Source of the DNA: Albibacterium bauzanense
Lineage (GTDB): Bacteria; Bacteroidota; Bacteroidia; Sphingobacteriales; Sphingobacteriaceae
DNA length: 64,000 nucleotides
Direction: 5' to 3'
Assembly: GCF_004339765.1 (NCBI RefSeq)
Contig: NZ_SMGO01000002.1
Coordinates: forward strand, 1-64,000
Shown here: positions 3,543-26,690 of the stretch, piece by piece
Position numbering within the stretch: position 1 is the first letter of the stretch
Layout of the letters: every line of letters starts with the position of its first letter
Notes under the pieces: model-generated
The model's database searches: none
The model's input: only the letters and a program-made list of their open reading frames with translations
What the model was told of the DNA's origin: nothing
Program-made: the position numbers and the translations under genes

Positions 3543-3545
3543 AGT

Positions 3546-4709: not shown

Positions 4710-4757
4710 AATATTTATTTTATTCAGTTTTCTAAATTCTTTAATTCAAATTAAAGA

Positions 4758-6953: not shown

Positions 6954-6970
6954 AATAATAATTTATTAAA

Positions 6971-8449
6971 TTAACTTAATTCTCTGATTAATAATTCTTC
7001 CCATTCTCGATAAACCTCTTCGTAAGAAGTGATAGCTTTGGGCTCAACTATCTTTATCGGTTTTATATTAGCAAATGCCTCTTCTGCAGAGGAAAAACTC
7101 TTATATCCAATACCTGCACCTAATGCAGCTCCAACACTTCCATCAGTTTGGTAAAGTTCTACCGGAACTCCAGTGGAGTTCACAAATGCATCAATGAATA
7201 AATCACTCATAAAAAGATTGGCTTTTCCAGCTCTGATGATATTAGGCCTCATTCCCATCTCTTTCATCCTATCTAAACCATATCGAAATGAGAAGGCAAT
7301 GCCTTCTTGGACAGCTCTAAAAATATGCGCTTGCGAATGTCTATTTAAATCAATATTATTTATATGTGCGCCTATAATCTTATTATTTAACATCCTCTCA
7401 GCCCCATTTCCAAAAGGTAGTACACGCAATCCTTCACTACCGACGGCTACCCTTTGCGCTTCTCTATTCATACCCTCATAACCTTCGTTAGATAAAAAAT
7501 TATTTTTAATCCAACGGTTTAATATTCCGGTACCATTAATGCAAAGCAAAACTCCCAAACGATTAACTTCCTTTGTATAATTTACATGTGCAAAGGTATT
7601 TACACGCGAATCTGAATCGTAAACTAATTGATCTGTAACTCCATATATTACGCCCGATGTTCCTGCCGTAGCTGCAACCTCTCCTGGTCTTAATACATTC
7701 AATGATAATGCATTATTTGGTTGATCGCCTGATTTATAAGTTACCGGAATTTCTGGCTTCAACGATAAAATATCTGCAACACTTTTACTAAGATTACCAT
7801 GCGCTGAAAATACTTCTTGAATCGGAGGAAACATTCCCCTATCAAAACCATAATACTCAATAATATCTTTCGATAAATCGTTCTCTTTAAAATCCCAGAA
7901 CACTCCTTCTGATAATGCAGATATACTTGTTGTAATATCTCCCGTTAGTTTCATTGCAATAAAATCTCCAGGAAGCATCACTTGGTATACCTGTTCAAAT
8001 ATATCAGGTTCATTCTCTTTCACCCAAGCTAGTTTTGCTGCAGTAAAGTTACTTGGAGAGTTCAAAGTACGACTTAAACACCTCTCATGCCCTATTCCAT
8101 CAAAAGCTCTATCTCCAATTTCAACTGCCCTACTATCACACCAAATAATGGAATTTCGCAAAACATGTTTATCCTTATCTACCAGAACTAACCCATGCAT
8201 CTGATAAGCGATACCGATAGCAGCAATATCTAACGGGTTATATATGCCTGACTTATTAAGCCTTAATATAGCCTTCTGTACATGTTCCCACCACATTTCC
8301 GGATCCTGTTCTGCCCAACCCACATTTTTTACTATTATCTCCGATTCTATATCAGGATATTGGGATGAAGCTATACATTGTTGATTAGCTGAATCAACTA
8401 CTGAAACTTTGATCGAAGATGTACCTACATCAATTCCTAATAATAACAT
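6971..8449 (-). CDS. xylB: Xylulokinase (FGGY family)
   Basis: 492 residues with the FGGY kinase start GIDVGTSSIKVSVV, the substrate segment YQMHGLVLVD, MLPGDFIAMKLTGD, the ATP-site segment EVAATAGTSGVIYG, and the C-terminal IRAGKANLFMSDLF. It phosphorylates D-xylulose to xylulose-5-phosphate, the substrate of the transketolase at the left edge. First gene of the five-gene operon that continues with xylA. A LacI-type operator lies about 70 bp upstream. Other FGGY substrates are possible in principle, but linkage to xylA makes xylulose by far the best call. Confidence 0.95.
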   Translation of the reverse strand: MLLLGIDVGTSSIKVSVVDSANQQCIASSQYPDIESEIIVKNVGWAEQDPEMWWEHVQKAILRLNKSGIYNPLDIAAIGIAYQMHGLVLVDKDKHVLRNSIIWCDSRAVEIGDRAFDGIGHERCLSRTLNSPSNFTAAKLAWVKENEPDIFEQVYQVMLPGDFIAMKLTGDITTSISALSEGVFWDFKENDLSKDIIEYYGFDRGMFPPIQEVFSAHGNLSKSVADILSLKPEIPVTYKSGDQPNNALSLNVLRPGEVAATAGTSGVIYGVTDQLVYDSDSRVNTFAHVNYTKEVNRLGVLLCINGTGILNRWIKNNFLSNEGYEGMNREAQRVAVGSEGLRVLPFGNGAERMLNNKIIGAHINNIDLNRHSQAHIFRAVQEGIAFSFRYGLDRMKEMGMRPNIIRAGKANLFMSDLFIDAFVNSTGVPVELYQTDGSVGAALGAGIGYKSFSSAEEAFANIKPIKIVEPKAITSYEEVYREWEELLIRELS

Positions 8450-10994: not shown

Positions 10995-11735
10995 TTATTT
11001 TGTCCGCCCCATAGCATATTTAATCCCTCCTAAAATATGCTTCACAAGAAGAGGATCGGTAATGGATTTTTCGTCATGGCCTAAAGCTGTATAGAAAGAA
11101 CGGCCTCCATCAAATGCATGAAACCAACTAATTGGATGAAATTCACCATTCTGGCCACCTTCATAGCTATTCTCGTCAACTGTAATCAAAACATCAAGCC
11201 CTTGACCAATCCATTTAAAGTTATAGATCTCATCAGTTTTTTCCCACTGTTGTGGTAAATGAGATGTTGATATATTATTCGCGTCAATTATATTCAATAA
11301 TACATCCTGTTGTCCACGAGGATGATTCTTAAAGTAGGCCCCTATAAGTTCACCATACCATGGCCAATCGTATTCAGTATCTGTAGCGGAGTGGATTCCA
11401 ACAAATCCTCCTCCTGATTGTATGTAATTCTCAAATGCTTCCTGTTGCTCATCATTTAAAACATCTCCAGTTGTACATAAGAAGACTACAGCGTCAAATT
11501 GTTTTAGGTTTTCAGAATTAAAAACCTGTGAATCTTCGGTAATTTCAACTTCAAAACTATTCTCCTTACCCAGTTGCTGAATTACTATTTGGCCAGCTGA
11601 TATAGCAGAGGAATGTCTAAATGTTACTGTTTTACTGAAAACTAATATTTTATTTGAATTAGCCAATAAATTTTCATTAAATGAAAGAATCAGGAAAAAA
11701 CAAAAAAGAAGTGATAAAGTAATTTTATTTTTCAT
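10995..11735 (-). CDS. Exported ThuA-domain protein
   Basis: 246 residues: Sec signal peptide (about residues 1-25, ending FNENLLANS) and one ThuA domain, a relative of class I glutamine amidotransferase folds. Signatures are ILVFSKTVTFRHSSAI, FDAVVFLCTTGDVL, GGGFVGIHSATDTEYDWPWYG and FYTALGHDE. ThuA was first named in rhizobial trehalose utilisation, where the thuAB genes are tied to 3-keto-sugar metabolism. It is immediately upstream of the cytochrome-bearing dehydrogenase. In the 1226-residue protein at 23010-26690 the same two domains are fused, so the two proteins probably work as a pair. Precise chemistry of ThuA is unsettled. Confidence 0.85.
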   Translation of the reverse strand: MKNKITLSLLFCFFLILSFNENLLANSNKILVFSKTVTFRHSSAISAGQIVIQQLGKENSFEVEITEDSQVFNSENLKQFDAVVFLCTTGDVLNDEQQEAFENYIQSGGGFVGIHSATDTEYDWPWYGELIGAYFKNHPRGQQDVLLNIIDANNISTSHLPQQWEKTDEIYNFKWIGQGLDVLITVDENSYEGGQNGEFHPISWFHAFDGGRSFYTALGHDEKSITDPLLVKHILGGIKYAMGRTK

Positions 11736-11930: not shown

Positions 11931-13760
11931 CTAATTTGTATAACCTGGGTTTTGTTCAATATTTGGATTTTGATCTATCACATTTTGTGGGATCGGGCTC
12001 ATATATTGTTTAGGTAAAAACTTCACAGTATATTTCTTTTCCTCTTCAACAGAGTATACCCACACACCTGAGTTATCAGCTGGTTTTGTATTACGGATAA
12101 CCATATTATGTCTAGGTGTACCCATTATTTCTTCATTCTGAGCTAGACGCTTATTATCAAGGAATCGCTTATCTTCAAAACAAAGCTCCACCCTTCTCTC
12201 TCTATAGATTGCTTCTCTCATCTGCTCTTTTGAAAGTCCAGTTGCAAGACTTGGAAGATCTGCGCGGTTTCTAATTTTATTAACTGCGTCATAAACAGAT
12301 GCGATAGGTCCACTTGCTTCATTCGCTGCTTCTGCATAGTTAAGTAAAACCTCTGCATAACGATAGAAAATGAAGTTTTGACCACTTGCATTATCTCCAG
12401 GAGCTTTATCAGGATTTAACTTTTTCTTTTGATAGTAACCTGAATCTCCAACATCTGTTGTACCAGCTAAGTCAATTTGATTTGTTTTATCTGGATTAGG
12501 AACAGTTTCGTCGATGCGGGTACGAATTATTTCCTCTCTAGGCATCCAATCCATTTTATAATGAGCTCCATCAAATACAATGAAATCATAAAATCTTTGT
12601 TCACGGTCTTTATATGGATCCTGAGGATCATAGCCTGAAGTAGGATCAGTAATTAGTTTACCATTTGCCATACTAAACTGATCAACCAATTCCTGAGTTG
12701 GATTATAATTTCCCCATGTTTGATATTCCCCTAATACGTAAGTCGGTCCACCAAATCTTTCATAACTAGAACCCATATTTGTATTAGCGACAACTTGTCT
12801 GTCCCAGATCACCTCAGAATTATATTCATTCGACTCTCTCCATAAATTTGCTAAATCATCGAATAAACGGTAAGGATTACCATTTCCATATTCATCAATA
12901 AATTTTTTATTAGTGGCTGCAGCAGTAGCCCATCTATTTGCATCATAGTTTCCAAAATGAACAAACTTGCCAGGATCAGGTAAATAAGGCGACGCTGTGT
13001 TAAACAGAGGACTTGCGCCAAATAATTCAATCCATCCTTTTACTACTAACGCAGCACCTAAAGTAGCTCTTCCTGCATCAGGTGAACCTGGTGACATTTT
13101 AACTGGCAAATAACCATTAGAAACAACACTTCCTAATTCACTAGTAATGAAATTAAAAGTTTCTTCGAAAGTAGCTCTCGGTGTTTGCAACTCTTCTGGT
13201 GTCATACTATTACGATCCAATACCTCTGTAAGTATAGGTAATCCTCCTACATGCATAAAGAATTCACTGTAAAAATAGGCACGTAGAAACCTTGCTTCAT
13301 CAATTCGACGATTGAAATACGCTTCAGAAAAATTAGCCTTATTTTCATTCATTTTTTGTATGTATGTATTGATCTTCCTGATTTTCACAAAGAACTGCTG
13401 CCAGGTATATCCATCGGTCGGACCCTGTGTGCCTCCCCAAATATTATCTGTACTGGATGATGGTACAATAGCCATACCTACTCTCCAATTGGACGCCGTA
13501 TAATAATGGCTAATATTATAATTATCTGTGAAAAAATCCAGGTTTTGTGTCAGGTTTGACTTATTTGGGATCTCGCTATAGATATCATTTAGGTAAATAT
13601 CTGCGTTCGTCTCATTCGCCCACTGTGTAACGTCCGTTAAATTACTCTTATTATCATTATCCAGGAACTCGTCTGGTTTACATGATGCGATTAAGAGAAT
13701 CACCCCTAAACATATCATAAAGGGCCTAATTCGATTATATATTGATTTATTTGCTTTCAT
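11931..13760 (-). CDS. SusD/RagB-family glycan-binding lipoprotein 1
   Basis: 609 residues. Lipoprotein signal (MICLGVILLIASC) then the SusD fold with TPR-like helices and the family C-terminus (NFIFYRYAEVLLNYAEAANE, YRERRVELCFEDKRFLD, QNPNIEQNPGY). SusD proteins sit on the outer face of the outer membrane as the lid of a SusC transporter. It starts 10 bp after the partner susC ends, so the two are one transcript under the operators at 17039-17331. Ligand is unknown. The neighbours are oxidative enzymes rather than hydrolases, so the imported ligand may be a short glycan or glycoside. Confidence 0.95.
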   Translation of the reverse strand: MKANKSIYNRIRPFMICLGVILLIASCKPDEFLDNDNKSNLTDVTQWANETNADIYLNDIYSEIPNKSNLTQNLDFFTDNYNISHYYTASNWRVGMAIVPSSSTDNIWGGTQGPTDGYTWQQFFVKIRKINTYIQKMNENKANFSEAYFNRRIDEARFLRAYFYSEFFMHVGGLPILTEVLDRNSMTPEELQTPRATFEETFNFITSELGSVVSNGYLPVKMSPGSPDAGRATLGAALVVKGWIELFGASPLFNTASPYLPDPGKFVHFGNYDANRWATAAATNKKFIDEYGNGNPYRLFDDLANLWRESNEYNSEVIWDRQVVANTNMGSSYERFGGPTYVLGEYQTWGNYNPTQELVDQFSMANGKLITDPTSGYDPQDPYKDREQRFYDFIVFDGAHYKMDWMPREEIIRTRIDETVPNPDKTNQIDLAGTTDVGDSGYYQKKKLNPDKAPGDNASGQNFIFYRYAEVLLNYAEAANEASGPIASVYDAVNKIRNRADLPSLATGLSKEQMREAIYRERRVELCFEDKRFLDNKRLAQNEEIMGTPRHNMVIRNTKPADNSGVWVYSVEEEKKYTVKFLPKQYMSPIPQNVIDQNPNIEQNPGYTN

Positions 13761-13770
13761 AATAATTATC

Positions 13771-16700
13771 TTAAAAATTCAATTCTATTCCAAAGGTTGT
13801 TGATTTCATAACAGGATATGAGGTCTCCCGATTAGAGTATCCTACTTCAGGATCTATATGTTTTAGCTTACTAAATGTAAACATGTTTTGACCTGTTGCA
13901 TATACTCTCAAAGATCCAATTCCCCATTGTTTGGTTATTCTTTCAGGAATTCTATAGCTGATAGAAGCAGTCTTCAAACGAAGATAACTTGTATTTGCCA
14001 TCCAGAAATCTGAAGCCTTTGTATTATTTGAATAAGGTGCAGGAAGAGAACGAGGATATTTAGCATTTTGGTTTTCAGGAGTCCAACGATTATCATAATA
14101 CTCATAAGCTGTATTACTTCCATTGTTTTCAAATGGAACAGTCATAAACTGTCTAATATTGATATTTGATTTGCCTGATCCTTGGAAGAATAAAGATAAA
14201 CCAACCCCTTTCCATTCAACCGAAGGAGTAAATCCAAATGTCCATGCAGGATAAACAGGATTACCAATTACTGTTAAATCATTATCATCAATAATACCAT
14301 CTGGAGTGCCATTTGGACCACTCAAATCTGCATATCTTATATCTCCGGGATGAAGAGCACCAAACTGTTGAATATTGTATCCATCCTGAGCATCCACAAT
14401 ACCATCATCATTAACATCATCTGCAGTTGAGAATAAACCAAGCGATTTAAAGCCATATGGAGTTCCGAAAGGCTGTCCTACTCTTGTACGGTTAGGGTTA
14501 TTACGCTCAGCGTCTGTTTGAAAAACTTCAACCATACTATTTTTCGCATAACTAACGTTTGCATTAAAAGAATAACTAAAATCTTCACTAAAGCTTCCTC
14601 TGGTTCCTGCACTTATTTCAAAACCTTTATTTTTCATCTCACCCTTATTCTCTTCTGATAATGAAAGTCCGTATTCTACAGGAAGAGTAACTTGAGGAGC
14701 TAATAACATACCAGTTCTACGTTCTGTAAAATAATCAAACTCTACGTTAAGTCTGCTATTCCATAGATTGAAATCAACACCAACGTTAGTTTTGGTTGAT
14801 ATCTCCCATGTTATATTCGGATTAGGCTCTCGTTCAATGCGAGACCCTTGCACTAAAGTACCATTACCAAAAGCATAAGCATTTCCTCTTAGGTTATAAC
14901 CAGTCATATATTGAAAAGCTCTTCCGGCAAGCATCCCTGCTTTACCCCATGAACCTCTAATTTTCATATCTGTTAACCAGTTATCAGTACCATCCATAAA
15001 TTTCTCTTCAGAGATACGCCATGCCGCTGAGAAAGATGGGAAATACCCCCATCTGCTTCCCGGAGCAAAGTAATAGTGTCCATCATACCTTCCTGCCGCT
15101 TCAAACATATATTTCTGATCATAAGCATAAGCTAAACGATATACGTATCCAACTTCACTACCTGTATTCGAATTACCATCATTATTGAAGTCTAAGCGAT
15201 TTGAACTTCCCAAACCAAGCTCATCAATCCCTACACTAAAGTTATCTCTTCTTGCATTAAAGAAGTCTTCCTTATATTGACGGCCTTCTGCAACCAATAA
15301 ACCAGTCACGGAATGAACATCATTAAACGTTTTACTATAATTAACGTATCCTTGATAGGTGTAATTAGTTTGACGACGGTTTTCTAAACTAAGCCATGTA
15401 TAAGGCTTTCCTCCACCTTCTTGTAACGATACAGCCTCTGTAAATGAATAAGGATTCGTAGACAAATCAATCACATGATATTTAAAAGGAACATGATATA
15501 GCTTATTATTAATTTGAGTAGGGTCATAACTAAATACACCCTTTACACTTAAGCCATCAATAATTTGTTGTTCAACAAATAAAGTACTTAATAAAGTATT
15601 TTGATCAATCTTTCTATATCCTGGAGACCTTAAAACACCTACCGGACTGTTCGCAGAAGATTCTCCCCAATGCTCGCCATCTGGATAAATTAAACTTTGT
15701 GTAGGTAAGAATTTATAAAAAGAGCGGAATAAGTGATTCCCTGTTGTCTCATCAGCATCGATGTCGTCTATGCGCGAAATAGATCCCTGCAAGGAGAAAC
15801 CCACTTTTGTTGTAGCAGTAGGCTTCATTTCCAAATTAATATTATAATTATATCGATTATAGCCTACTTGATCAAAAATTCCTTGTTGGTCATAATAACC
15901 TAAAGCAGCATAATAACTAACATGCTCTGTACCGCCCCTGAAATCAATTCCATAGTTCTGAGTAGGGGTATTCTTATTAAATAGATCAAGGAAATTAGAA
16001 TTAGGATATTTATAAGGATCATCCTTATGTAGCTGATTATAATCTTTAATTAGATCAGGATCATTAGGTGGCGTGGTGCCATTCGGAGTCTGATTATAAT
16101 ACCCTTCATTTTGCAATGTCATATAATCAACTGCGTCCAACATCTTAGGCAAATAAGTAGGATTAGAAAAACCTATAGAAGAACTTAGACGAACCTGAGG
16201 CTTTCCAACTACTCCGCGCTTGGTTGTAATTAACACAACACCATTTGCACCCCCTATACCAAATGGAGCCACTGCAGCCGCATCTTTCAATAATGTAACG
16301 GTTTCGATAGTAGACGGGTCTATTTGTTGCATATTATCCCGTTTTATTCCATCCACTATAATTAACGGCCCATTATTATCTCCAGTAGTTACAATACCAC
16401 GAATATGAATGTCTGGACTATCAAAACCAGGTTGTCCACCATTTGGACGCATACTGATACCAGAAAGTCGACCAGCCATAGACTCTGAAATGTTAGGAGC
16501 AGGCACTTGAGCTAGCTCATCCCCCTTTATGGAACTGATAGATCCGGTAACCTCTGCACGCTTCTGAGTACCGTAACCAACAACAACAACTTCAGATAAA
16601 GCTTGAACATCTGGCTCCAAAATAACATTCAACATACTATTGTTTCCAACAGTTACTTCCTGTTTAAGATAACTAATGTACGTAAACTCAAGAACGCTAC

Positions 16701-16971
16701 TTTGGTTAGGAACAGCAATCGTAAAACGACCATTTAAATCAGTCGCAACTCCTTGAGAGGTTCCTTTAACTTGGACACTCACTCCAATTAATGGCAATCC
16801 TTCTGGATCTTTTACAGTTCCGGAAACTTGAGTTTGTGAAAATGCTAACGAAGCAGTTAAAATCGTCAGCACAACTAAAACGGAAAACCTTTGCAGACTC
16901 TCCCAATAGTACTTAAGACAAAATCTCAATCTGTTAGATTTGTCTAACACATTTTGTAAAATTTGATTCAT
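13771..16971 (-). CDS. SusC/RagA-family TonB-dependent transporter 1
   Basis: 1066 residues. A long n-region and hydrophobic stretch (VLVVLTILTASLAFSQ, to about residue 46) form the signal peptide. A carboxypeptidase-regulatory-like domain follows (VSGTVKDPEGLPLIGVSVQV), then the SusC signature EVVVVGYGTQKRAEVTGSIS, the plug (GVVLITTKRG) and a beta-barrel ending in TTFGIELNF. It imports oligosaccharides across the outer membrane with TonB energy. No STN domain is present, so it is not tied to an anti-sigma/ECF switch. Regulation instead fits the three LacI-type operators upstream. Confidence 0.96.
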   Translation of the reverse strand: MNQILQNVLDKSNRLRFCLKYYWESLQRFSVLVVLTILTASLAFSQTQVSGTVKDPEGLPLIGVSVQVKGTSQGVATDLNGRFTIAVPNQSSVLEFTYISYLKQEVTVGNNSMLNVILEPDVQALSEVVVVGYGTQKRAEVTGSISSIKGDELAQVPAPNISESMAGRLSGISMRPNGGQPGFDSPDIHIRGIVTTGDNNGPLIIVDGIKRDNMQQIDPSTIETVTLLKDAAAVAPFGIGGANGVVLITTKRGVVGKPQVRLSSSIGFSNPTYLPKMLDAVDYMTLQNEGYYNQTPNGTTPPNDPDLIKDYNQLHKDDPYKYPNSNFLDLFNKNTPTQNYGIDFRGGTEHVSYYAALGYYDQQGIFDQVGYNRYNYNINLEMKPTATTKVGFSLQGSISRIDDIDADETTGNHLFRSFYKFLPTQSLIYPDGEHWGESSANSPVGVLRSPGYRKIDQNTLLSTLFVEQQIIDGLSVKGVFSYDPTQINNKLYHVPFKYHVIDLSTNPYSFTEAVSLQEGGGKPYTWLSLENRRQTNYTYQGYVNYSKTFNDVHSVTGLLVAEGRQYKEDFFNARRDNFSVGIDELGLGSSNRLDFNNDGNSNTGSEVGYVYRLAYAYDQKYMFEAAGRYDGHYYFAPGSRWGYFPSFSAAWRISEEKFMDGTDNWLTDMKIRGSWGKAGMLAGRAFQYMTGYNLRGNAYAFGNGTLVQGSRIEREPNPNITWEISTKTNVGVDFNLWNSRLNVEFDYFTERRTGMLLAPQVTLPVEYGLSLSEENKGEMKNKGFEISAGTRGSFSEDFSYSFNANVSYAKNSMVEVFQTDAERNNPNRTRVGQPFGTPYGFKSLGLFSTADDVNDDGIVDAQDGYNIQQFGALHPGDIRYADLSGPNGTPDGIIDDNDLTVIGNPVYPAWTFGFTPSVEWKGVGLSLFFQGSGKSNINIRQFMTVPFENNGSNTAYEYYDNRWTPENQNAKYPRSLPAPYSNNTKASDFWMANTSYLRLKTASISYRIPERITKQWGIGSLRVYATGQNMFTFSKLKHIDPEVGYSNRETSYPVMKSTTFGIELNF

Positions 16972-17373: not shown

Positions 17374-19431
17374 TCATTTAACTACTCGAATAACTCCTCT
17401 CATTACAAGATAATGACCTGGGTAAGAGCATATATAAGGATAAACTCCTGGAGTATTTGGCACATTCAAATAAATTGCTTGTGTTTCCCCTGGTTGCAAA
17501 ATTTTAGTATATGCAATAACCTTAGAACTATTAGGAACATAATTCATCTTCTCTCCTTGCACGCCTAATTTCAACGCTAACTCTCCGATTTCATTTCCTG
17601 CACCAACTTCCGTCATTACAAAATTATGAAGCATATCATCGTTATTATTAAAAACTAACTTAAGCTTGGTTCCGACTTTTACAGTAATATTATCTGTACT
17701 AAACTTCAATCCCGACAATGTTCTCAGTGTTATCGTAAGATCGGCTTTTCCACCCCAATTTGCAGGCATTTGTACCGTATGTTTACCTAAAACTTCTTGA
17801 TCTTTTACTGCTTGAGTTGTATTTGAATTACTAACCATTGATTCATGATCATGACCCATTGACATTTCAACTCTGTTATCATCTGTAATTATTACCTTCT
17901 CTCCATTAGGTATATTATTCAATGTGTAATACCCAAAATTATGTAATAGAGGACGTTGTTCTGCAGATAAAACACCTTCAGCTTTTATTTCATGTATGTA
18001 TCCTTCTTTTAAACTATCTAAAACTAGTCGAACGCGCATTTTATCTTCAGACACGACAATTGCCTTAATCGCACGATCTGCTTGATTAATCGGAGGACTT
18101 CCATACGTACTATGATATTTATAAATAAAGTCTCCTATACTATAAGATGATACATCACGAGCGGACTTTTCATCAACTGGCAATGTAAATTCTATTTCAA
18201 AACCATCAGGCTGCGCCTTAATTGTTTTCATTTCAAAGGGCATAACACCTGTCCATTCCAGCTTCTGCAATCCAAACGGAGCACTTCCTGTAGATCCCCA
18301 ACCGCGAGATGTCATTCCAACAAACATGGCTCCATCAGGACCCCAATTCATTCTTAATATACCTGAGGAAAATCCTTCCCGAAAAGGAAAAACAACTCCT
18401 TGATAAACACCCTTCACTTTCTCAAGAAATACACGCATAATTTTACTATGACCTTGATCCCCAACAAACAATTGATCTTCAAATGGCCCCATCTTTCCTT
18501 CATTATTATAATTAAGAATCCCTGATGTAGAAATCCCTAATATCGTGTGAGGAAACCATACAGCGGGCGTTTTAATTCCTTTAACGGTTTTAGCTACTTC
18601 AAACATAGGCTTTCCTGTATCTGGAATATCTGAAGGTTTCAATGTTATATTCGACTCGGGTTCTCCAGACCATTTCAAGCTACTCGGATTTCCCATAAAA
18701 TCTCTTTCCGCAACATGTGAAATAAAGCCTGATCCCACCCAGTGACCTTGATTATCAGAATAGAATATATCTCCTGAACTATTTAACCCCATACCCGCTG
18801 GCGATCTAAATCCGGCCGCAAAAGGTGTCATTTTAAAATCTGGAGAAAATTTGAGCATCCAACCATGCCATTTTGAAAGGCTTTCACTATTCCCATTCCA
18901 ACCAAGATTCAACGCTACAATCATATCACCATTCTTATCTAATAATGGTCCATAAGCATACTCATGATAATTTCCTGTTTCAGACAAAGGCCAAGAATAC
19001 ATTGTTTCATACTGGTCAGCCTTACCATCACCATCTGAATCTCTCAAACGAGTTAATTCAGAACGTTGTACAGCATAAATATCTCCTTTAATATAATTTA
19101 AACCTAAAGGTTCATGTAGACCTTGAGCAAATAATCTGTAAGTTGGCTGCCTTCTATCCTTCATTGAAGTATTGTCTATAATCCAAACTTCGCCTCGACG
19201 TGTAGAAACTGCCAGTGAACCACTAGGCAAAAATGTCATTCCACCTACCTCAAGAAGAAGCCCTTGAGGAATAGGCACTGTACTTAACCGATAAATATCA
19301 TTTTCGGTGTATATCTTAACAGTATCATTAGCTGTAGAATTATTTATACTATTATTTTGTCCAAAGCTAATTGTTGAATATAGAACACCTATGACTGCTA
19401 AATATTTTATATAATTTATTTTCAGATTCAT
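17374..19431 (-). CDS. Exported beta-propeller dehydrogenase with C-terminal cupredoxin domain
   Basis: 685 residues. Sec signal peptide (YLAVIGVLYSTISFGQ), then a sorbosone/glucose-dehydrogenase-like six-blade propeller (MTFLPSGSLAVSTRRGEVW, QGLHEPLGLNY, RDSDGDGKADQYETMY, SPAGMGLNSSGDIFYSDNQG, LFVGDQGHSKIMRVF). The last 120 or so residues are a plastocyanin/azurin-type domain: MLHNFVM gives one copper histidine and YICSYPGHYLVMRG gives the Cys-X4-His-X3-Met of a type 1 copper site. It should oxidise a sugar-derived substrate and pass electrons to its own blue copper. It starts 11 bp after the DUF1080 gene ends, so the two share a transcript. The propeller cofactor (PQQ or none) cannot be told by eye. 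Confidence 0.85.
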   Translation of the reverse strand: MNLKINYIKYLAVIGVLYSTISFGQNNSINNSTANDTVKIYTENDIYRLSTVPIPQGLLLEVGGMTFLPSGSLAVSTRRGEVWIIDNTSMKDRRQPTYRLFAQGLHEPLGLNYIKGDIYAVQRSELTRLRDSDGDGKADQYETMYSWPLSETGNYHEYAYGPLLDKNGDMIVALNLGWNGNSESLSKWHGWMLKFSPDFKMTPFAAGFRSPAGMGLNSSGDIFYSDNQGHWVGSGFISHVAERDFMGNPSSLKWSGEPESNITLKPSDIPDTGKPMFEVAKTVKGIKTPAVWFPHTILGISTSGILNYNNEGKMGPFEDQLFVGDQGHSKIMRVFLEKVKGVYQGVVFPFREGFSSGILRMNWGPDGAMFVGMTSRGWGSTGSAPFGLQKLEWTGVMPFEMKTIKAQPDGFEIEFTLPVDEKSARDVSSYSIGDFIYKYHSTYGSPPINQADRAIKAIVVSEDKMRVRLVLDSLKEGYIHEIKAEGVLSAEQRPLLHNFGYYTLNNIPNGEKVIITDDNRVEMSMGHDHESMVSNSNTTQAVKDQEVLGKHTVQMPANWGGKADLTITLRTLSGLKFSTDNITVKVGTKLKLVFNNNDDMLHNFVMTEVGAGNEIGELALKLGVQGEKMNYVPNSSKVIAYTKILQPGETQAIYLNVPNTPGVYPYICSYPGHYLVMRGVIRVVK

Positions 19432-19442
19432 GTCAGATTAAT

Positions 19443-20852
19443 TTACCAGATGATCGAATATTCCAATGAGGAGATGTTTTTACTAAATGCGATTACAAGT
19501 TCGTCTGCATTTCGCGATTTTCTAATAATAGGCTTCAAACGTTCATTTACTTTTATATAATATGATTTCCCGTCTATAACATATAAACCCTTCCCTAAAG
19601 ATTCTATCACTTTACCGCTTGCTATTCTAAAATATAAATTTGTCGGTGCATTAGTAACACTAACCTCTCTTATCAAAGATTCTCCATTGGCTACCATTGA
19701 AATTTTATCATCAACATTAAATCCACTATACTCATAATGGAAAGTTACATTTTTGTTATTATCTAGAGAATAGCCTTTATTATGAAAATCATCAAATGGA
19801 ATTGAATCTGGCCATATAGAATCTGAATTACTTAATAAAGCAACCGATGGTGCAGAAGACAAAGTAATCAACGCTCCAAGTGGGGTAGCTAACTGGGGTT
19901 CACCTCTAGACTCCCACATATCAGTCGCATCAACAAATCCTCCTCGCCAAAATTGTAAAATGGATCCTTGTTTTAAATCATAAGAATAATTAGTATGATT
20001 AGGATTTCCTACTGATATTACGTGCGTGCGCTTGCCATTGTCGAACAATAAATAACTTCTTAATACATATGGTTCTGCTTTAGCTTCTACTATAATAGGA
20101 TTAACCATACGAAATCGCCTGGCAGCATCACCGGTTAATTGTTGAACAGGTTCTTCGAAGCTTTTATAACTTATATTTCTAAATGCTAAAACATGGTTCT
20201 CATCTGCTTGAAAAACGAGAGGCCCCTTTGTACTTTCATCATTAAAAATCGCTCCATCAGAAGGACCTTCTAATGAAATGCCTTGATGAATAAGCACTCC
20301 ATTCAAATATACCTCAGCAAAACTTGCTTTATCTACTTTCTTCCCTGAACTATCAAAAGTAGGAGATTTGAATTTCACTTTTAAATGTTGCCATAAACCA
20401 GGTGCTTTCCCAACATTACTTATAGGCTGCTTTGTATGAAAGGAAATACTACTTTCTGCTTTATTAACATCTATAGTTCCAATTCTAGATAGGGGATTTT
20501 GACTTTCCGGCCAACTATCAGATAATTGGATCTTATAACGTCCCATTATATATACGGCAGAATTACTTCCATTAGTTGTTAAAAAATCAAAATCTATTTC
20601 AGTATCGCCCTCCAATTGCAATCCAGATACTAAATTAGTTGCGCCTTTCATTGGAGTATTCACAACAATGCCATTTCCCTTAACAAACTTTGTTGTTGAT
20701 TTATTAAAATCTGTTATTAAATCAGAAACAATCAACCAATTTTCACCTGGTTTCTCGAATGCGTCAAAATTCGAAGTGGGAACAGAACTTTGAGAGAATA
20801 CATAATTCGAACATATTATGCTCCCTAGTAATAGCAAGACAACTTTCTTCAT
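19443..20852 (-). CDS. Exported DUF1080 protein with extra C-terminal domain
   Basis: 469 residues, Sec signal peptide to about residue 20 (LLLLGSIICSNYVFSQ). Residues about 30-235 look like a divergent DUF1080/LamG-type jelly-roll (TEIDFDFLTT, NSAVYIMGRYKIQL, GLWQHLKVKFKSP, AEVYLNGVLIHQG, HVLAFRNISYKSF). Residues about 240-469 form a second beta-rich domain I do not recognise (KAEPYVLRSYLLFDNGKRTH, GSILQFWRGGFVDATDMWES). Co-transcribed with the dehydrogenase-cupredoxin that follows. A role in binding or cleaving an oxidised glycoside is plausible from the DUF1080 part only. The FWRGGFVDATDMW segment contains several aromatic residues that could bind sugar. Confidence 0.75.
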   Translation of the reverse strand: MKKVVLLLLGSIICSNYVFSQSSVPTSNFDAFEKPGENWLIVSDLITDFNKSTTKFVKGNGIVVNTPMKGATNLVSGLQLEGDTEIDFDFLTTNGSNSAVYIMGRYKIQLSDSWPESQNPLSRIGTIDVNKAESSISFHTKQPISNVGKAPGLWQHLKVKFKSPTFDSSGKKVDKASFAEVYLNGVLIHQGISLEGPSDGAIFNDESTKGPLVFQADENHVLAFRNISYKSFEEPVQQLTGDAARRFRMVNPIIVEAKAEPYVLRSYLLFDNGKRTHVISVGNPNHTNYSYDLKQGSILQFWRGGFVDATDMWESRGEPQLATPLGALITLSSAPSVALLSNSDSIWPDSIPFDDFHNKGYSLDNNKNVTFHYEYSGFNVDDKISMVANGESLIREVSVTNAPTNLYFRIASGKVIESLGKGLYVIDGKSYYIKVNERLKPIIRKSRNADELVIAFSKNISSLEYSIIW

Positions 20853-20959: not shown

Positions 20960-22072
20960 TTAACTAAAGGTAAATTCAGGCAGATGCATAATCTCTCCTC
21001 CTTTCATTGCAGATTCATGTGCTAAAATACCTACACAGGTAATGTTAGCCGCCTCAACTGCATTAGGATAGGGTTGACGATTCTTCGATAATGAACTTAC
21101 AAACTCATGAACTAAATGGGGATGAGAACCACCATGTCCGGATCCCTGGATGAAAGAAAGATGCTGATGCCCTTCTAAATCATACACAGATTCAGTTGTG
21201 AATTCTTGAATCTCTGTAGGTAATAAGTGAGCATAATCCTTAATCTTAACTCTTTCCGGACTTTCTCCGGTATGAATAACGCTATCTTCATGTTCAATCA
21301 ATGTCCACTCAAAAGATTTTTTAGAACCATACACATCAAAACTCTCCCGGTATTGACGTGCTGTATTAAACAATGAACGGGTTACCTCAGCTGACAGATC
21401 GGAGTCCTTTAGCTTAATATGACAAGTTTCAATCGCAAAGGGAGAACCATATTTTGGTATCAGATTTTCATCAATCCTACCAGAACCGAAACAAGAAACA
21501 TATTCAGCAGAAGCTTTTGGAAGTGCCAAAACCGGACTAACACAATGGGTAGCATAATGCATAGGCGGTAATCCTTCCCAGTAACCTGGCCATCCACCCA
21601 TTTCCTGTTGATGCGATCCGCGCAGAAATTGAATCTTGCCTAATTCGCCATTTTCATATAATTCCTTTACAAACAAAAACTCCCGGCTATAAACCACGGT
21701 CTCCATCATCATATAGGTAAGCCCGGTTTCTTTTACAGCATCGACGATTCGTTTGCAATCCTCAACACTGGTAGCCATAGGAACTGTGCAGGCAACATGC
21801 TTTCCTGCACGCAAGGCTGCAATTGACTGCTCCGCATGGTTCTGAATCGGAGTATTGATATGAACCGCATCAACTTCCGGATCTTTCAACAATTCATCGA
21901 AATCTGTGTATCGCTTCTCAATCCCAAAAGCATTACCAATTTCCTCCAGTTTCTCTGTATTCCTCTGACAGATAGCATACATATTTGCATCTGGATGCTT
22001 TTGATAAATCGGAATAAATTCCGCCCCAAACCCTAATCCTACTATCGCTATATTTATTGGCTTATTACTCAT
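20960..22072 (-). CDS. Gfo/Idh/MocA-family oxidoreductase with atypical active site
   Basis: 370 residues, no signal peptide. Rossmann start INIAIVGLGFGAEFIPIYQ, VDAVHINTPIQNHAEQS, then KHVACTVPMATSVEDC where most family members have EKP. The catalytic lysine position therefore appears to be lost. Downstream PMHYATHCVSPVLAL retains a histidine at the usual site, and RLVHEF-like HPHLVHEFVSS lies near the end. Third gene of the operon headed by the ThuA-dehydrogenase-cupredoxin fusion, 44 bp after the TIM-barrel epimerase. Either this subgroup uses another residue for proton transfer, or it performs a different step such as isomerisation or binding. Fold assignment is firm; function is open. 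Confidence 0.85.
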   Translation of the reverse strand: MSNKPINIAIVGLGFGAEFIPIYQKHPDANMYAICQRNTEKLEEIGNAFGIEKRYTDFDELLKDPEVDAVHINTPIQNHAEQSIAALRAGKHVACTVPMATSVEDCKRIVDAVKETGLTYMMMETVVYSREFLFVKELYENGELGKIQFLRGSHQQEMGGWPGYWEGLPPMHYATHCVSPVLALPKASAEYVSCFGSGRIDENLIPKYGSPFAIETCHIKLKDSDLSAEVTRSLFNTARQYRESFDVYGSKKSFEWTLIEHEDSVIHTGESPERVKIKDYAHLLPTEIQEFTTESVYDLEGHQHLSFIQGSGHGGSHPHLVHEFVSSLSKNRQPYPNAVEAANITCVGILAHESAMKGGEIMHLPEFTFS

Positions 22073-22116: not shown

Positions 22117-22980
22117 TTATTTCTCTTGCGACCACTTTCTTAAAAACTGCAAACCTTCCTCGGCAAAACCATCTTGACTTGGTACTAAAGGTCGCCACAT
22201 ACAAACAGCACCTGCTAACTCTTTATTGTCAGGAGTAAAACTTTCAATAGAAACAGTTTTATTATAATTAATTGCTGTTAACCCACGTTTATAGGCTCCC
22301 CAATTAGTTTCACCCGTTCCAGGTGTACCTCTGTAATTTTCCGATACTTGTAAGTGAACAAGCTTATCTCCAACGGAAATAATAGCTTTTTCAATATCTC
22401 GTTCTTCAATATTCATATGAAAGCCATCCAGAATAACCTTAGCTGAAGGATGATCAATATCTTTAATCAGCTTCATTACATCTTCAGCAGTATTTACAAG
22501 ATCCGATTCAAAACGATTAAGAGGTTCAATAGCTAACTCTACACCGAAATCCTCTGCCATTACACATGCTTTTCTGATGTTAACTACAGCACGATCCCAT
22601 TCAATCCGTTTCTGATCAGGAGATACCAAGCGTGCTTTTCCCACCGAAGAGTACATGGGGCCTGAAACAGATTCAGATCCCAATGCACTAGCTACTTTCA
22701 CACAAGCATGAATATAATCAAAACTAGTTTGATGATAAACAGGATCATCATTTGTAAAATCCCTGCTTGGACCAAATGCCCCACAAATCATCGCTTTTAG
22801 ATCATTTTTTAAGAGAGCTTCATTTACTTTCTCTACATCAATTAAAGAAGGGTCTTCTACTGGTATTTCAACAAAATCATAACCCATCCGCTTTATTTTG
22901 GGAAAAAGAGATAATGTATCAGAATTAAATGGCGATGTCCAAAGCCATGTACTAACACCAAACTTAATATCTAAGCCCAT
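22117..22980 (-). CDS. TIM-barrel sugar epimerase (tagatose/psicose 3-epimerase-like)
   Basis: 287 residues, the usual size of D-tagatose/D-psicose 3-epimerase and hydroxypyruvate isomerase relatives, cytosolic. Metal-site residues appear in order: IEPLNRFE, VILDGFHMNIEE, LVHLQVSENYRGTPGTG and VSIESF. Such enzymes move the carbonyl or invert C3 of keto-sugars using manganese. It lies 29 bp after the 1226-residue fusion gene and just before a Gfo oxidoreductase, so it should process the same intermediate. An exact substrate cannot be named. Confidence 0.88.
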   Translation of the reverse strand: MGLDIKFGVSTWLWTSPFNSDTLSLFPKIKRMGYDFVEIPVEDPSLIDVEKVNEALLKNDLKAMICGAFGPSRDFTNDDPVYHQTSFDYIHACVKVASALGSESVSGPMYSSVGKARLVSPDQKRIEWDRAVVNIRKACVMAEDFGVELAIEPLNRFESDLVNTAEDVMKLIKDIDHPSAKVILDGFHMNIEERDIEKAIISVGDKLVHLQVSENYRGTPGTGETNWGAYKRGLTAINYNKTVSIESFTPDNKELAGAVCMWRPLVPSQDGFAEEGLQFLRKWSQEK

Positions 22981-23009: not shown

Positions 23010-26000
23010 TTATTTAACTACTTTCATTACTCCTTGCATCATTCTCCAATGTCCCGGGAATGTACATACAAAAGGATAGTCCCCTACCTGTGATGGAGCA
23101 GTAAATTCTAAGACAGTGCTTTCGTCCGGATCTAACAATTTTGTAGCATGCAACACTTCTGGAATGCGGGGAACATAGGACAAAGAGGCTGCATTCGCAT
23201 TAAGTGCCATTTCATCGGCTGCCGCACCTACTTTATTTAGTGTTCCTGGTTTAATAATAATTAAATTATGTTGCATTTGATCTGGATTTGCAATACGAAT
23301 ACGTACTTTTTGACCAGCTTTAACCGTTACCAACTTCTTACTAAATGCCATCGCATTTGGAACAACATCTATTTGTAATACCGTTACATCCTGTGCAGGT
23401 GCATTCACAGGCTTAGCCGTTTCTGCAACAACTGTCTTAGCGGTGCCTGGTTTTCTTAATTCAATGGTAGCATCTTCCATACTCCCGGTAAATCTGAATG
23501 TACCTTCATAATCACCAATTTTATCATTAGTAGGTTCTTGAAGATCCTGAGAAGATCGCAAATTCAGGTCTAATGTCTTGGTAAATAATGCGGGAGCCTT
23601 ACCCTTAGCCACCTGCTTACCGTCCACTTCGATACTCATTTCTCCACCTGCCAGTAACTTAGCAACCAATTCATATTTTTCTGGTAAAGCAGCATTTGAA
23701 ACAGCCACATAAGATTTACCATCCTGCCGAACGATCATATTTAATTTGCCGTCCTGAATAAAGACTCCATAACCGTTTTCTCTTCCACCTTGACCCGCTA
23801 TAAAACCTTGAATAGGTGCATTCGGATCAATAGCAACCTGCTGACCTCCTGGGCCATTTGGACGGCCATCCTGCTGGCTTGCACGACCAATAGCAGCTTT
23901 AATGATAATTTCCTTGCCAACCACATCCGGGCTAAAAGCTACTGCGCCAACAGAACCTTGTCTGCGAGCTAAGGAATATATCTCGTTACTCAAACCCTGA
24001 ACAACCCGTTGAGTTAAGGTCAATTCGGTTGTACCTGAAGTCTTAAATCCAGCCGGCACTGATGACATAAATCCATCTTGATGTCTTATAGCTGCTGCAT
24101 ACAAAGCTTTTGAAATCCACTCATCTTTCGCATTCTCAGCATCCAGACTTGCTGTATATAATGCTTTACCTGCTTCTACGGAAGTCGGAAGTTGAGCCAC
24201 AACAACGAACGCATTCATGCGCGTATTCAGATCAGGATCCTTTAATAAACCAGCCTTTTGAATCAATGCAAATGTCTGCTCATTTTTAGGCAGCACTTCC
24301 AGAGCAGCTTTTCTGACACCAGCAGAAGGATGAGATAAAGCACCAACTACCGCTTGAGAAGCCTCAGAATTAGAGCCATCTAATACTTTTAAACCTTCCA
24401 AGGTCCATAAAGCATTAATTGCGGGGCCATTCAAACCAATTTCATCAACTTTTTTATCATTAATTAGTTTAATCAATCCCGGTATTGCTGCCTTATTATT
24501 ATTCTCAACCAATAAACGTTGTGCAGTCAATCGCCAAAATAAATTATCACTTTCCAAAGCGCCTAATAAACCAGCCGTGTTATCTTTAGAAAGACTAATG
24601 GGGGTATAAGGTTTAGCATCTTTATAAACAATTCGGTAAATACGACCTCGGTCTAGATCACGCATTGGAGTAATAAAAGCATTACCCTGACCATTTATAA
24701 ATTGCTTTCCTTCAGAAACGGTAGGTCCAGGAGTAGGGTTATGCTGAATAATGAAGTTATACCAATCAGCAACCCAAACAGCACCATCCGGACCAACCGT
24801 TGCCTGAACGGGACCTACCCACTCATCTGAACTTGCTAATAAGTTCCATCCATCTACCTCTTTATAACCTGCTCCACTACGCTCAATTATTGCATTATGA
24901 GTAAGTCTACCAGTAGGCTCATTTACAAATGCAATGCGATTCCAATATTCCTTAGGAAAATTCCTAGCCGTATAAAAATCATGACCAGCCGCGGCAGTAA
25001 AACCTCCATGCACATCTACCTGTCTTAAATTAGGAGTAAGCGTATGCATATCACCGTGACCCTGAATGATGGAAAGAGGAATAACTTGTTGAGCAACATT
25101 TCTTCCTCCAGGTCTTCCATTGCTATTCTGTGTATCAGAAGCTTGAACAATTCTTTCAGGGAAAGGTCTTTGCATCAATTGATAAGGCATTGAGTAATAA
25201 TCACTGTGATTACCGTTGGCTGTAGAAACAAAAACATTATTATCTTCCGTAAATCCTAAACCCCAGGTATTATTATTCGAATTTGCTAAAAATTCAAAAT
25301 CAGTGCCATCAGGGTTAAAACGATAAACTCCTTGAGCAAACCTAAAACTCTTATTATCGATGGTATTATTAAATCCAGAATAACCAACTACCCCCCAAAT
25401 CTTATTATCAAAACCATATCTTAAATTTGAAGGTCCTGCATGTGTATCATTCTTACCCCAACCTTCCATAAATTCCTGACGAAGATCCGCTTTATCATCC
25501 CCATCTGTATCCTTCAAGAAAACCATATGGGGAGCCATCGATATAATCACACCTCCATTCGCAAATACGATGCTGGAAGGGATATTAAGACTATCTGCAA
25601 AAATTGTAAATTTATCTGCTCTTCCATCACCATCGGTATCTTCTAATATCTTAATTCGATCGTTAGCAGCACCATCCGTTTCCACAAAAGTATTTGGATA
25701 ATCTACTGACTCTACAATCCACAACCGCCCTCTTTCATCCCAAGACATCGCAATCGGATTCGTTATATCAGGCTCTGCTGCAAAAAGTTTAACTTCGAAA
25801 TCAACCGGTACCTGCATTAAATCCATAGACTCTTCGGGTGTCAAGGCATATTGAAACTTTGGTGCAGGATCCCGTTTCTCATAATTAGGAACAATGATCG
25901 TATCGTTATATAAAACCTTCGGAGTTTTAAATGCTGCAATTTCAGCCTGAACTTTATCACCGATAGCCCACAATACTCCGTTTCCAATCAACTTCTGAAA

Positions 26001-26690
26001 CATCGGATTTGTCCAGGTGCTGTCATTATGACCGTAAGCAGTATAAAACACTCTTCCTTTTCCCTGATTACGAACCCAGGTCCAAGGCTCTTTCACACCA
26101 TTTTCTACACGTTCCTGCAATACCGTTTTATCAGGATTTATGTTACTATGAACATAGGTTTCATCCCAGGTCTCAAACTCATTAATACCTTCCATAACCG
26201 GATGAGTCTTGTTAACATTTACTGCGGTGAAATGACCGGTTTTATGCGATTTAAACTGACCTCCAATAGCTTGGATATACCACGATGAATTAACAAAACT
26301 CGCTGATGCAGAATGAATCGGGATCAATCCCTTTCCGCCTTCTACAAAGTCTTTTATCACTTTTTCTTTAGCCGGAGAGATCTTATCATAATTAGCATAG
26401 ATAATCAGCCCGTCATATTTATTTAAATTTGCTGCATTAAGATCATTCGTATCGGTAGTATAAGTGATATTAATACCACGGGCAAACAAAGGAATGCTAA
26501 GCATAGGAGCAAACTTCCCGGAATTATGATGCGTATCTTTATGTCCTAAAAATAACACTTCAGCCCTACGCCCCGGAGGTTGCTGTTTGTCATTCTTGTC
26601 TCTTATATTAATTGAATGGTTATAAATACCGTTTGCAAGACTGCTAAGCAAAACACCGCTAAACAGCATTAAAAAGAAAATCTTCTTCAT
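23010..26690 (-). CDS. ThuA / dehydrogenase / HEAT / LamG-like / cupredoxin fusion protein
   Basis: 1226 residues, exported (MLFSGVLLSSLANG). Domains in order: ThuA at about 42-245 (AEVLFLGHKDTHHNSG, FNTAYGHND-like VFYTAYGHND); beta-propeller dehydrogenase at about 280-690 (LTPEESMDLMQVPVDFEVKL, DTDGDGRADKFTIF, GHDFYTARNFPKEYWNRIAF); HEAT-like repeats at about 700-850; a LamG-like segment at about 930-1080 (GYGVFIQDGKLNMIV, GDYEGTFRFTGSMEDATIEL); and a C-terminal type 1 copper domain with MQHNLI and FVCTFPGHWRMMQG. It heads an operon with a TIM-barrel epimerase and a Gfo enzyme, behind two LacI-type operators. The same modules are separate or carry cytochrome c elsewhere in the window, so this fusion ties them functionally. 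The substrate is unknown. Confidence 0.87.
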   Translation of the reverse strand: MKKIFFLMLFSGVLLSSLANGIYNHSINIRDKNDKQQPPGRRAEVLFLGHKDTHHNSGKFAPMLSIPLFARGINITYTTDTNDLNAANLNKYDGLIIYANYDKISPAKEKVIKDFVEGGKGLIPIHSASASFVNSSWYIQAIGGQFKSHKTGHFTAVNVNKTHPVMEGINEFETWDETYVHSNINPDKTVLQERVENGVKEPWTWVRNQGKGRVFYTAYGHNDSTWTNPMFQKLIGNGVLWAIGDKVQAEIAAFKTPKVLYNDTIIVPNYEKRDPAPKFQYALTPEESMDLMQVPVDFEVKLFAAEPDITNPIAMSWDERGRLWIVESVDYPNTFVETDGAANDRIKILEDTDGDGRADKFTIFADSLNIPSSIVFANGGVIISMAPHMVFLKDTDGDDKADLRQEFMEGWGKNDTHAGPSNLRYGFDNKIWGVVGYSGFNNTIDNKSFRFAQGVYRFNPDGTDFEFLANSNNNTWGLGFTEDNNVFVSTANGNHSDYYSMPYQLMQRPFPERIVQASDTQNSNGRPGGRNVAQQVIPLSIIQGHGDMHTLTPNLRQVDVHGGFTAAAGHDFYTARNFPKEYWNRIAFVNEPTGRLTHNAIIERSGAGYKEVDGWNLLASSDEWVGPVQATVGPDGAVWVADWYNFIIQHNPTPGPTVSEGKQFINGQGNAFITPMRDLDRGRIYRIVYKDAKPYTPISLSKDNTAGLLGALESDNLFWRLTAQRLLVENNNKAAIPGLIKLINDKKVDEIGLNGPAINALWTLEGLKVLDGSNSEASQAVVGALSHPSAGVRKAALEVLPKNEQTFALIQKAGLLKDPDLNTRMNAFVVVAQLPTSVEAGKALYTASLDAENAKDEWISKALYAAAIRHQDGFMSSVPAGFKTSGTTELTLTQRVVQGLSNEIYSLARRQGSVGAVAFSPDVVGKEIIIKAAIGRASQQDGRPNGPGGQQVAIDPNAPIQGFIAGQGGRENGYGVFIQDGKLNMIVRQDGKSYVAVSNAALPEKYELVAKLLAGGEMSIEVDGKQVAKGKAPALFTKTLDLNLRSSQDLQEPTNDKIGDYEGTFRFTGSMEDATIELRKPGTAKTVVAETAKPVNAPAQDVTVLQIDVVPNAMAFSKKLVTVKAGQKVRIRIANPDQMQHNLIIIKPGTLNKVGAAADEMALNANAASLSYVPRIPEVLHATKLLDPDESTVLEFTAPSQVGDYPFVCTFPGHWRMMQGVMKVVK

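What the first reader, a model, noticed from the sequence alone, without database searches (positions are those of the whole stretch)
23010..26690. Five-module fusion links ThuA, dehydrogenase and blue copper in one exported polypeptide
One 1226-residue chain carries ThuA, a beta-propeller dehydrogenase, HEAT-like repeats, a LamG-like segment and a type 1 copper domain (FVCTFPGHWRMMQG). Elsewhere in the window ThuA (10995) and the dehydrogenase (8706) are separate adjacent genes. By the gene-fusion argument ThuA and the dehydrogenase should act on the same intermediate, outside the cytoplasm.
Basis: partly seen in the sequence, partly recalled or inferred. Interest (0 to 1): 0.75.

Follow-up and report, generated by a model that had tools for sequence, protein, structure and literature searches.

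The report
Exported ThuA–propeller–copper redox fusion protein
One long exported bacterial protein joins a sugar-oxidase-like propeller, a ThuA sugar-processing domain and a built-in copper electron carrier; relatives in several phyla keep the first two and use either copper or heme as the carrier, which points to an uncharacterised way of oxidising sugars outside the cell and passing the electrons to respiration.

Summary
ORF 23010-26690 (-) encodes one 1226-residue exported chain: ThuA, DUF7133 beta-propeller, HEAT-like helices, LamG-like sandwich, type 1 copper domain with all four ligands. The propeller's closest solved folds are PQQ sugar dehydrogenases. The ThuA-propeller-HEAT core recurs in nearly all of 80 loci from Bacteroidota, Planctomycetota, Verrucomicrobiota and others. 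The carrier is exchangeable: 51 chains have type 1 copper, 17 have one heme-c motif, none both; in three genomes copper is a separate adjacent gene. In the window the same parts also occur split (ThuA gene 24 bp from a propeller-HEAT-heme gene), a pairing kept in three other genomes. In 33 of 41 Bacteroidota loci the copper fusion sits beside a ketose-3-epimerase-like gene and a Gfo/Idh/MocA oxidoreductase. Most likely it is an extracytoplasmic sugar/glycoside dehydrogenase that passes electrons through the copper domain, with ThuA processing the keto-sugar (inferred). Cofactor and substrate are unproven: the PQQ-clamp arginines seem missing and pqqE was not found. A ThuA-GSDH fusion with xylosidase activity was published in 2015, so this is a new variant of a known kind.

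The parts
23010..26690 (-). Five-module exported fusion protein, 1226 aa
   Evidence: ORF; Pfam/NCBIfam; AF2 and Foldseek
26631..26690 (-). Signal-peptide-like N-terminus, residues 1-20, no lipobox Cys
   Evidence: sequence; most relatives have a lipobox-like motif
25965..26543 (-). ThuA domain, residues 50-242; conserved H126 H149 D176 E177 H221
   Evidence: Pfam PF06283; Foldseek 4jqs; conservation
24618..25838 (-). DUF7133 beta-propeller, residues 285-691
   Evidence: PF23500 E 1e-119; AF2 pLDDT 89.2; Foldseek to PQQ sugar dehydrogenases
24063..24578 (-). HEAT-like helical repeats, residues 705-876
   Evidence: AF2 secondary structure; HEAT_2 below cut-off
23454..23912 (-). LamG-like beta-sandwich, residues 927-1079; variable module
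   Evidence: Foldseek laminin G; absent in sister-species copies
23010..23390 (-). Type 1 copper (auracyanin/azurin-like) domain, residues 1101-1226; ligands H1141 C1209 H1214 M1218
   Evidence: Pfam; PDB 6kol/2aan; ligands invariant
22117..22980 (-). Partner: ketose-3-epimerase-like TIM barrel
   Evidence: PF01261; D-tagatose/psicose 3-epimerases; conserved neighbour
20960..22072 (-). Partner: Gfo/Idh/MocA oxidoreductase
   Evidence: PF01408; PDB relatives; conserved neighbour
19443..20852 (-). DUF1080 (3-keto-disaccharide hydrolase family) protein, 469 aa
   Evidence: PF06439 E 1.6e-15
17374..19431 (-). Second propeller plus type 1 copper protein, 685 aa, divergent
   Evidence: PF00127, weak DUF7133 and GSDH
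11931..16971 (-). SusD (11931-13760) and SusC (13771-16971) outer-membrane uptake pair
   Evidence: Pfam
10995..11735 (-). Solo ThuA gene of the split set
   Evidence: PF06283 E 2.7e-73; pairing in other genomes
8706..10970 (-). DUF7133-HEAT-cytochrome c gene of the split set, heme CxxCH at residue 629
   Evidence: Pfam; motif
5622..8449 (-). Xylulokinase-like (6971-8449) and xylose isomerase (5622-6953)
   Evidence: NCBIfam
2487..5570 (-). Second set of partners: DUF1080 (4758-5570), Gfo/Idh/MocA (3546-4709), TIM barrel (2487-3542)
   Evidence: Pfam

Best explanation
An exported redox enzyme of glycan use. The DUF7133 propeller oxidises a hydroxyl of a sugar or glycoside outside the cytoplasm (fold evidence; reaction inferred). 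Electrons pass to the built-in type 1 copper site and on to the respiratory chain (carrier role inferred from the strict copper/heme exchange). The ThuA domain then acts on the oxidised, probably 3-keto, sugar, isomerising it or helping to cleave the glycosidic bond (inferred from thuAB biology, fusion and adjacency). The partner ketose-3-epimerase-like and Gfo/Idh/MocA enzymes would turn the keto-sugar back into a usable sugar in the cytoplasm (inferred). The HEAT-like and LamG-like modules serve as scaffold and binding parts.
For: Fold: PQQ sugar dehydrogenases head the Foldseek list. Carrier: 51 copper, 17 heme, 0 both among 79 chains; the 11 others are eight truncated contigs, two with copper as the next gene, one without; Pfam confirms; 9 of 9 DUF7133-type proteins of the own genome and 23 of 23 solo relatives have exactly one carrier. 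ThuA link: fusion in nearly all 80 loci, adjacency when split, shared polar residues. Neighbours: epimerase-like and Gfo/Idh/MocA genes, DUF1080 in the operon. Papers: ThuA-GSDH protein with xylosidase activity (PMC4562250); TIGR02604-HEAT-heme protein acting on lactose (PMC5342196); thuAB forms 3-keto derivatives (PMC4765114); DUF1080 as 3-ketoglycoside hydrolase (PMC9007349). Oxidase genes present.
Against: No sequence relative of the propeller in the PDB. By motif comparison the arginines that clamp PQQ in sGDH (from memory) are not kept, and pqqE was not found. No substrate or product is known. The two papers report hydrolysis, not oxidation. Position 3 of the oxidation is an assumption. 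Site geometry untested.
Confidence: 0.5

Rival explanations
1. A glycoside hydrolase or lyase: propeller or ThuA cleaves glycosides without net oxidation, and the copper or heme domain has a secondary role, as the published activities of Xyl_S and Lac161_ORF7 would suggest.
For: Xyl_S (ThuA-GSDH) released xylose and glucose groups; Lac161_ORF7 released glucose from lactose with no acceptor named in the passages read.
Against: A carrier kept through about four exchanges of chemistry is hard to explain without electron transfer. Xyl_S isolated was slow (0.061 per s). Lac161_ORF7 was made in E. coli BL21(DE3), which to my knowledge has lacZ.
Confidence: 0.2
2. An aldose 1-dehydrogenase like sGDH/Asd: it oxidises free sugars, such as xylose or glucose, to lactones, and ThuA opens or moves the lactone.
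For: Closest folds are aldose dehydrogenases; xylose genes lie nearby.
Against: Partners are ketose epimerase, Gfo/Idh/MocA and DUF1080 proteins rather than lactonase or aldonate genes; thuAB biology is about 3-keto sugars.
Confidence: 0.17
3. The propeller is a non-catalytic binding platform and ThuA the only enzyme.
For: Some propellers of this fold only bind proteins: hedgehog-interacting protein is hit 22.
Against: Dozens of propeller residues, H417, R556, D622 and H650 among them, are almost invariant across phyla, and the ThuA domain, not the propeller, is the part found degenerate.
Confidence: 0.07

Closest known systems
Xyl_S / M768_06655 of Cellulosimicrobium cellulans (PMC4562250)
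   Same: Secreted chain with ThuA at the N-terminus followed by a sugar-dehydrogenase-type propeller, plus accessory modules; acts on glycosides
   Different: Propeller is GSDH (PF07995), not DUF7133; PKD and CBM6 modules instead of HEAT and LamG; no copper or heme domain is named
Lac161_ORF7, verrucomicrobial TIGR02604-HEAT-cytochrome c protein (PMC5342196)
   Same: Same propeller family, HEAT repeats, C-terminal electron carrier; reported activity on lactose
   Different: Heme instead of copper; no ThuA domain reported
Soluble PQQ glucose dehydrogenase / Asd / AA12 pyranose dehydrogenase
   Same: Propeller fold; a His and an Asn at matching motif places
   Different: No sequence relatedness found, GSDH Pfam model does not match, PQQ-clamp arginines apparently absent
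Auracyanin / azurin
   Same: Copper-domain fold, about 30-36% identity to auracyanins, all four ligands
   Different: Here fused to, or encoded next to, a propeller protein
thuAB and 3-ketoglycoside pathways (DUF1080, Gfo/Idh/MocA, TIM-barrel enzymes)
   Same: ThuA, Gfo/Idh/MocA, DUF1080 and epimerase-like genes occur together
   Different: Here ThuA is exported and tied to a propeller with its own electron carrier; 3-keto chemistry not shown

Membership tests
ThuA (PF06283) | Profile score over cut-off and ThuA fold | tested here: met
   132.9 bits against 33.4; Foldseek 4jqs, 4e5v, 1t0b
ThuA (PF06283) | Conserved polar residues shared with solo ThuA | tested here: met
   H126, H149, D176, E177, H221 shared
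Type 1 copper (auracyanin/azurin) | Cupredoxin fold and His-Cys-His-Met ligands | tested here: met
Type 1 copper (auracyanin/azurin) | Bound copper | not testable with these tools
   needs purified protein
DUF7133 / TIGR02604 | Profile score over cut-off | tested here: met
   400.7 and 256.3 bits
PVC-type heme-binding CxxCH protein (name of TIGR02604) | CxxCH heme motif in the chain | tested here: not met
   no CxxCH in the 1226 aa; copper domain instead
PQQ sugar dehydrogenase (GSDH PF07995, AA12) | Propeller fold of that group | tested here: met
   Foldseek hits 1-21
PQQ sugar dehydrogenase (GSDH PF07995, AA12) | GSDH profile match | tested here: not met
   no GSDH hit for this chain
PQQ sugar dehydrogenase (GSDH PF07995, AA12) | PQQ-binding residues | tested here: inconclusive
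   motif comparison by eye with GSDH relatives: His and Asn kept, clamp arginines not found; residue roles from memory
PQQ sugar dehydrogenase (GSDH PF07995, AA12) | PQQ synthesis in the genome (not strictly needed) | tested here: inconclusive
   pqqE model: no hit while all 14 controls ring by cross-hits; pqqC without a working control
3-ketoglycoside pathway | DUF1080 and Gfo/Idh/MocA genes in the locus | tested here: met
3-ketoglycoside pathway | 3-keto product formed | not testable with these tools
   needs product analysis

The most novel reading that the evidence does not exclude
A new class of extracellular oxidative glycosidase: propeller and ThuA together oxidise and break the glycosidic bond, without an sGDH-type PQQ site, and hand the electrons to a replaceable built-in wire, copper in Bacteroidota and heme c in Planctomycetota and Verrucomicrobiota.
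Probability: 0.3. Interest if true: 0.8.

Novelty: new variant of a known kind. Interest (0 to 1): 0.57.

Why it matters
To my knowledge ThuA has no settled biochemical function, and DUF7133/TIGR02604 proteins are numerous in Planctomycetota and Bacteroidota without an agreed one. A single chain that ties ThuA to a dehydrogenase-like propeller and to an electron carrier makes the question testable with one purified protein: does a sugar reduce the copper, and what comes out? It would also give a direct link between sugar oxidation outside the cytoplasm and respiration.

Tried and rejected
LamG module as a DUF1080 enzyme: profile comparison gave probabilities under 1%. Direct sequence link of the propeller to solved dehydrogenases: none; profile comparison with GSDH relatives was weak, so a fold search was needed. 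The fold search on the whole chain did not list the propeller in its top 50, so the propeller was modelled alone. Paper searches for ThuA with azurin or with PVC-type heme proteins gave nothing relevant; the primary thuAB paper and two papers on 3-keto glycan pathways are not held. The 685-aa propeller at 17374 falls on a branch too long to place. Reading the fusion as an isolated curiosity was rejected: the architecture is widespread.

Full report
Observation. The ORF at 23010-26690 (-) is one 1226-residue chain. Pfam and NCBIfam place ThuA at 50-242, DUF7133/TIGR02604 at 285-691 and a plastocyanin/azurin domain at 1107-1224. The AlphaFold2 model of residues 40-1226 (pLDDT 78.5, pTM 0.70) adds a helical stretch at 705-876 and a beta-sandwich at about 927-1079; Foldseek finds ThuA structures, auracyanins and laminin G domains. 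The propeller modelled alone with 66 sequences (pLDDT 89.2, pTM 0.89) matches PQQ-type sugar dehydrogenases first: TTHA0570, Acinetobacter sGDH, Streptomyces and E. coli aldose dehydrogenases, Coprinopsis pyranose dehydrogenase and Trichoderma AA12.

How widespread. In 100 related genomes, near-full-length relatives with the same order occur in several genera of the same family. A scan of GTDB genomes gave 80 loci, the display limit, from Bacteroidota (Dyadobacter, Algoriphagus, Cyclobacterium, Chitinophaga, Zobellia, Maribacter and others), Planctomycetota, Verrucomicrobiota, MAGs labelled Gemmatimonadota, Balneolota and Omnitrophota, and the gammaproteobacterium Paraglaciecola. Nearly all have ThuA, propeller and HEAT. 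The LamG module is variable: by a home-made profile it is missing in 13 of 45 Bacteroidota copper chains, and it is missing in both copies of the same-genus genome G001. The core is ThuA-propeller-HEAT-carrier.

The carrier. Of 79 main chains, 51 have a type 1 copper motif, 17 a CxxCH heme motif, none both. Of the 11 with neither, eight reach the end of the stretch held, two (L079, L094) have the copper domain as a neighbouring gene, and L062 has none nearby. G022 likewise has a separate cupredoxin gene next to three tandem core genes (L038). Pfam confirmed cytochrome c in the five heme chains tested and copper in both copper chains tested. On a tree of 103 propellers the carrier changes about four times against about 30 in shuffles (quick method, one very long branch included). 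All nine DUF7133-type propeller proteins seen in the window's own genome have exactly one carrier, seven heme and two copper; a tenth, short and weakly matching protein (389 aa, 39 bits) has none. The 23 solo relatives found in a further search all carry one heme motif. A part that is exchanged for an unrelated redox protein but hardly ever lost is best read as the electron acceptor of the propeller. This is inference, but strong.

ThuA. Fused ThuA domains keep H55, N100, H126, H149, D176, E177, H181, E201 and H221 almost without exception (L062 and L091 differ). H126, H149, D176, E177 and H221 are also kept in solo ThuA proteins beside DUF7133 genes and beside fusions. Four fusions have a shortened or degenerate ThuA domain (L052, L053/L091, L054, L086), and each has a solo ThuA gene next door, which suggests that the function is still needed. 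The solo ThuA gene of the window lies 24 bp upstream of the DUF7133-HEAT-heme gene; the same pair occurs in G022, G025 and G012. The genome has six ThuA domains: one fused, one this neighbour, and a third about 1 kb from another DUF7133-heme gene.

Neighbours. The larger ORFs from 27794 down to 2487 all lie on the minus strand. After the fusion come a ketose-3-epimerase-like TIM barrel (about 30 bp gap) and a Gfo/Idh/MocA oxidoreductase. In GTDB loci with at least 5.5 kb upstream, 33 of 41 Bacteroidota copper fusions have both genes within 4 kb and 38 have at least one. The first is closest to D-tagatose/D-psicose 3-epimerases and more remotely to a 3-keto-glucoside 4-epimerase; the second to glucose-fructose oxidoreductase, DgpA and, weakly, a sugar 3-ketoreductase. 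DUF1080, another propeller-copper gene, SusC/SusD, xylulokinase-like and xylose isomerase genes follow. The window thus holds two parallel sets, a fused copper set and a split heme set, each with a TIM barrel, a Gfo/Idh/MocA and a DUF1080 gene.

Literature. A secreted ThuA-GSDH-PKD-CBM6-PKD protein of Cellulosimicrobium cellulans was purified as the subunit with beta-xylosidase/beta-glucosidase activity; its catalytic domain was not assigned (PMC4562250). A verrucomicrobial TIGR02604-HEAT-cytochrome c protein, Lac161_ORF7, was reported to release glucose from lactose (PMC5342196); it was made in E. coli BL21(DE3), which to my knowledge has lacZ, so contamination must be considered. thuAB operons form 3-keto derivatives of disaccharides (as cited in PMC4765114 and PMC6683767). 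DUF1080 proteins are proposed 3-ketoglycoside hydrolases working with a periplasmic dehydrogenase (PMC9007349). No paper found in the held library describes the ThuA-DUF7133-copper architecture; most subscription papers are not held.

Mechanism proposed. Outside the cytoplasm the propeller oxidises a sugar or glycoside (fold supported, reaction inferred); electrons move to the copper site and on to respiratory carriers and oxidase (three COX1 homologues; path inferred); ThuA processes the keto-sugar (inferred); after uptake the partner epimerase-like and Gfo/Idh/MocA enzymes return it to central metabolism (inferred). A xyloside is a plausible substrate because of the xylose genes and the Xyl_S precedent, but other lineages have other neighbours.

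Limits. The propeller has no sequence relative in the PDB beyond low-complexity WD-40 matches. Compared by eye with GSDH motifs of the same genomes, H417 in DTHAGPSN and N474 in NNTWGLG take the places of the GSDH His and of the HRN asparagine, but the two arginines that I remember as clamping PQQ in sGDH are not found. The search for pqqE was negative although the model cross-hits in all 14 controls; the pqqC search had no working control. The cofactor may be scavenged PQQ or something else. The geometry of ThuA against the propeller could not be examined. Neighbourhood and conservation counts come from related genomes and are not independent events.

Verdict. Observation confirmed; interpretation partly supported; new variant of a known kind with an unproven but testable function.

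Noticed in passing
window 17374-19431 (-): A 685-aa protein with a divergent propeller and its own type 1 copper domain, a second copper-linked propeller in the same gene run.
   Followed up: partly
window 49553-52420 (-): GSDH-PKD-cytochrome c protein: a true GSDH-type propeller with a heme carrier in the same window.
   Followed up: partly
L138 3356-8454 (own genome, contig C3): Another ThuA-like gene, a TIM barrel gene and a DUF7133-type protein with heme lie side by side: a third ThuA-propeller association in this genome.
   Followed up: partly
L052 7275-10661, L053 8420-11761, L054 8059-11445, L086 6929-10129: Fusions whose ThuA domain has lost its conserved middle; each has a solo ThuA gene next door.
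   Followed up: partly
L038 3661-14635: Three tandem ThuA-propeller-HEAT-LamG genes with a single separate cupredoxin gene: a natural split of the copper domain.
   Followed up: partly
window 23010-26690 against relatives: The window copy has a signal peptide without a lipobox Cys, while most Bacteroidota relatives look like lipoproteins.
   Followed up: partly
L088: Paraglaciecola algarum (gammaproteobacterium) carries the fusion with AraC, Gfo/Idh/MocA and epimerase-like neighbours, nested among Flavobacteriaceae in the tree: likely horizontal transfer of the cassette.
   Followed up: no
L081: Record labelled Williamsia (Actinomycetota MAG) groups within Chitinophagaceae in the tree; probably a mislabelled or contaminated bin.
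   Followed up: no
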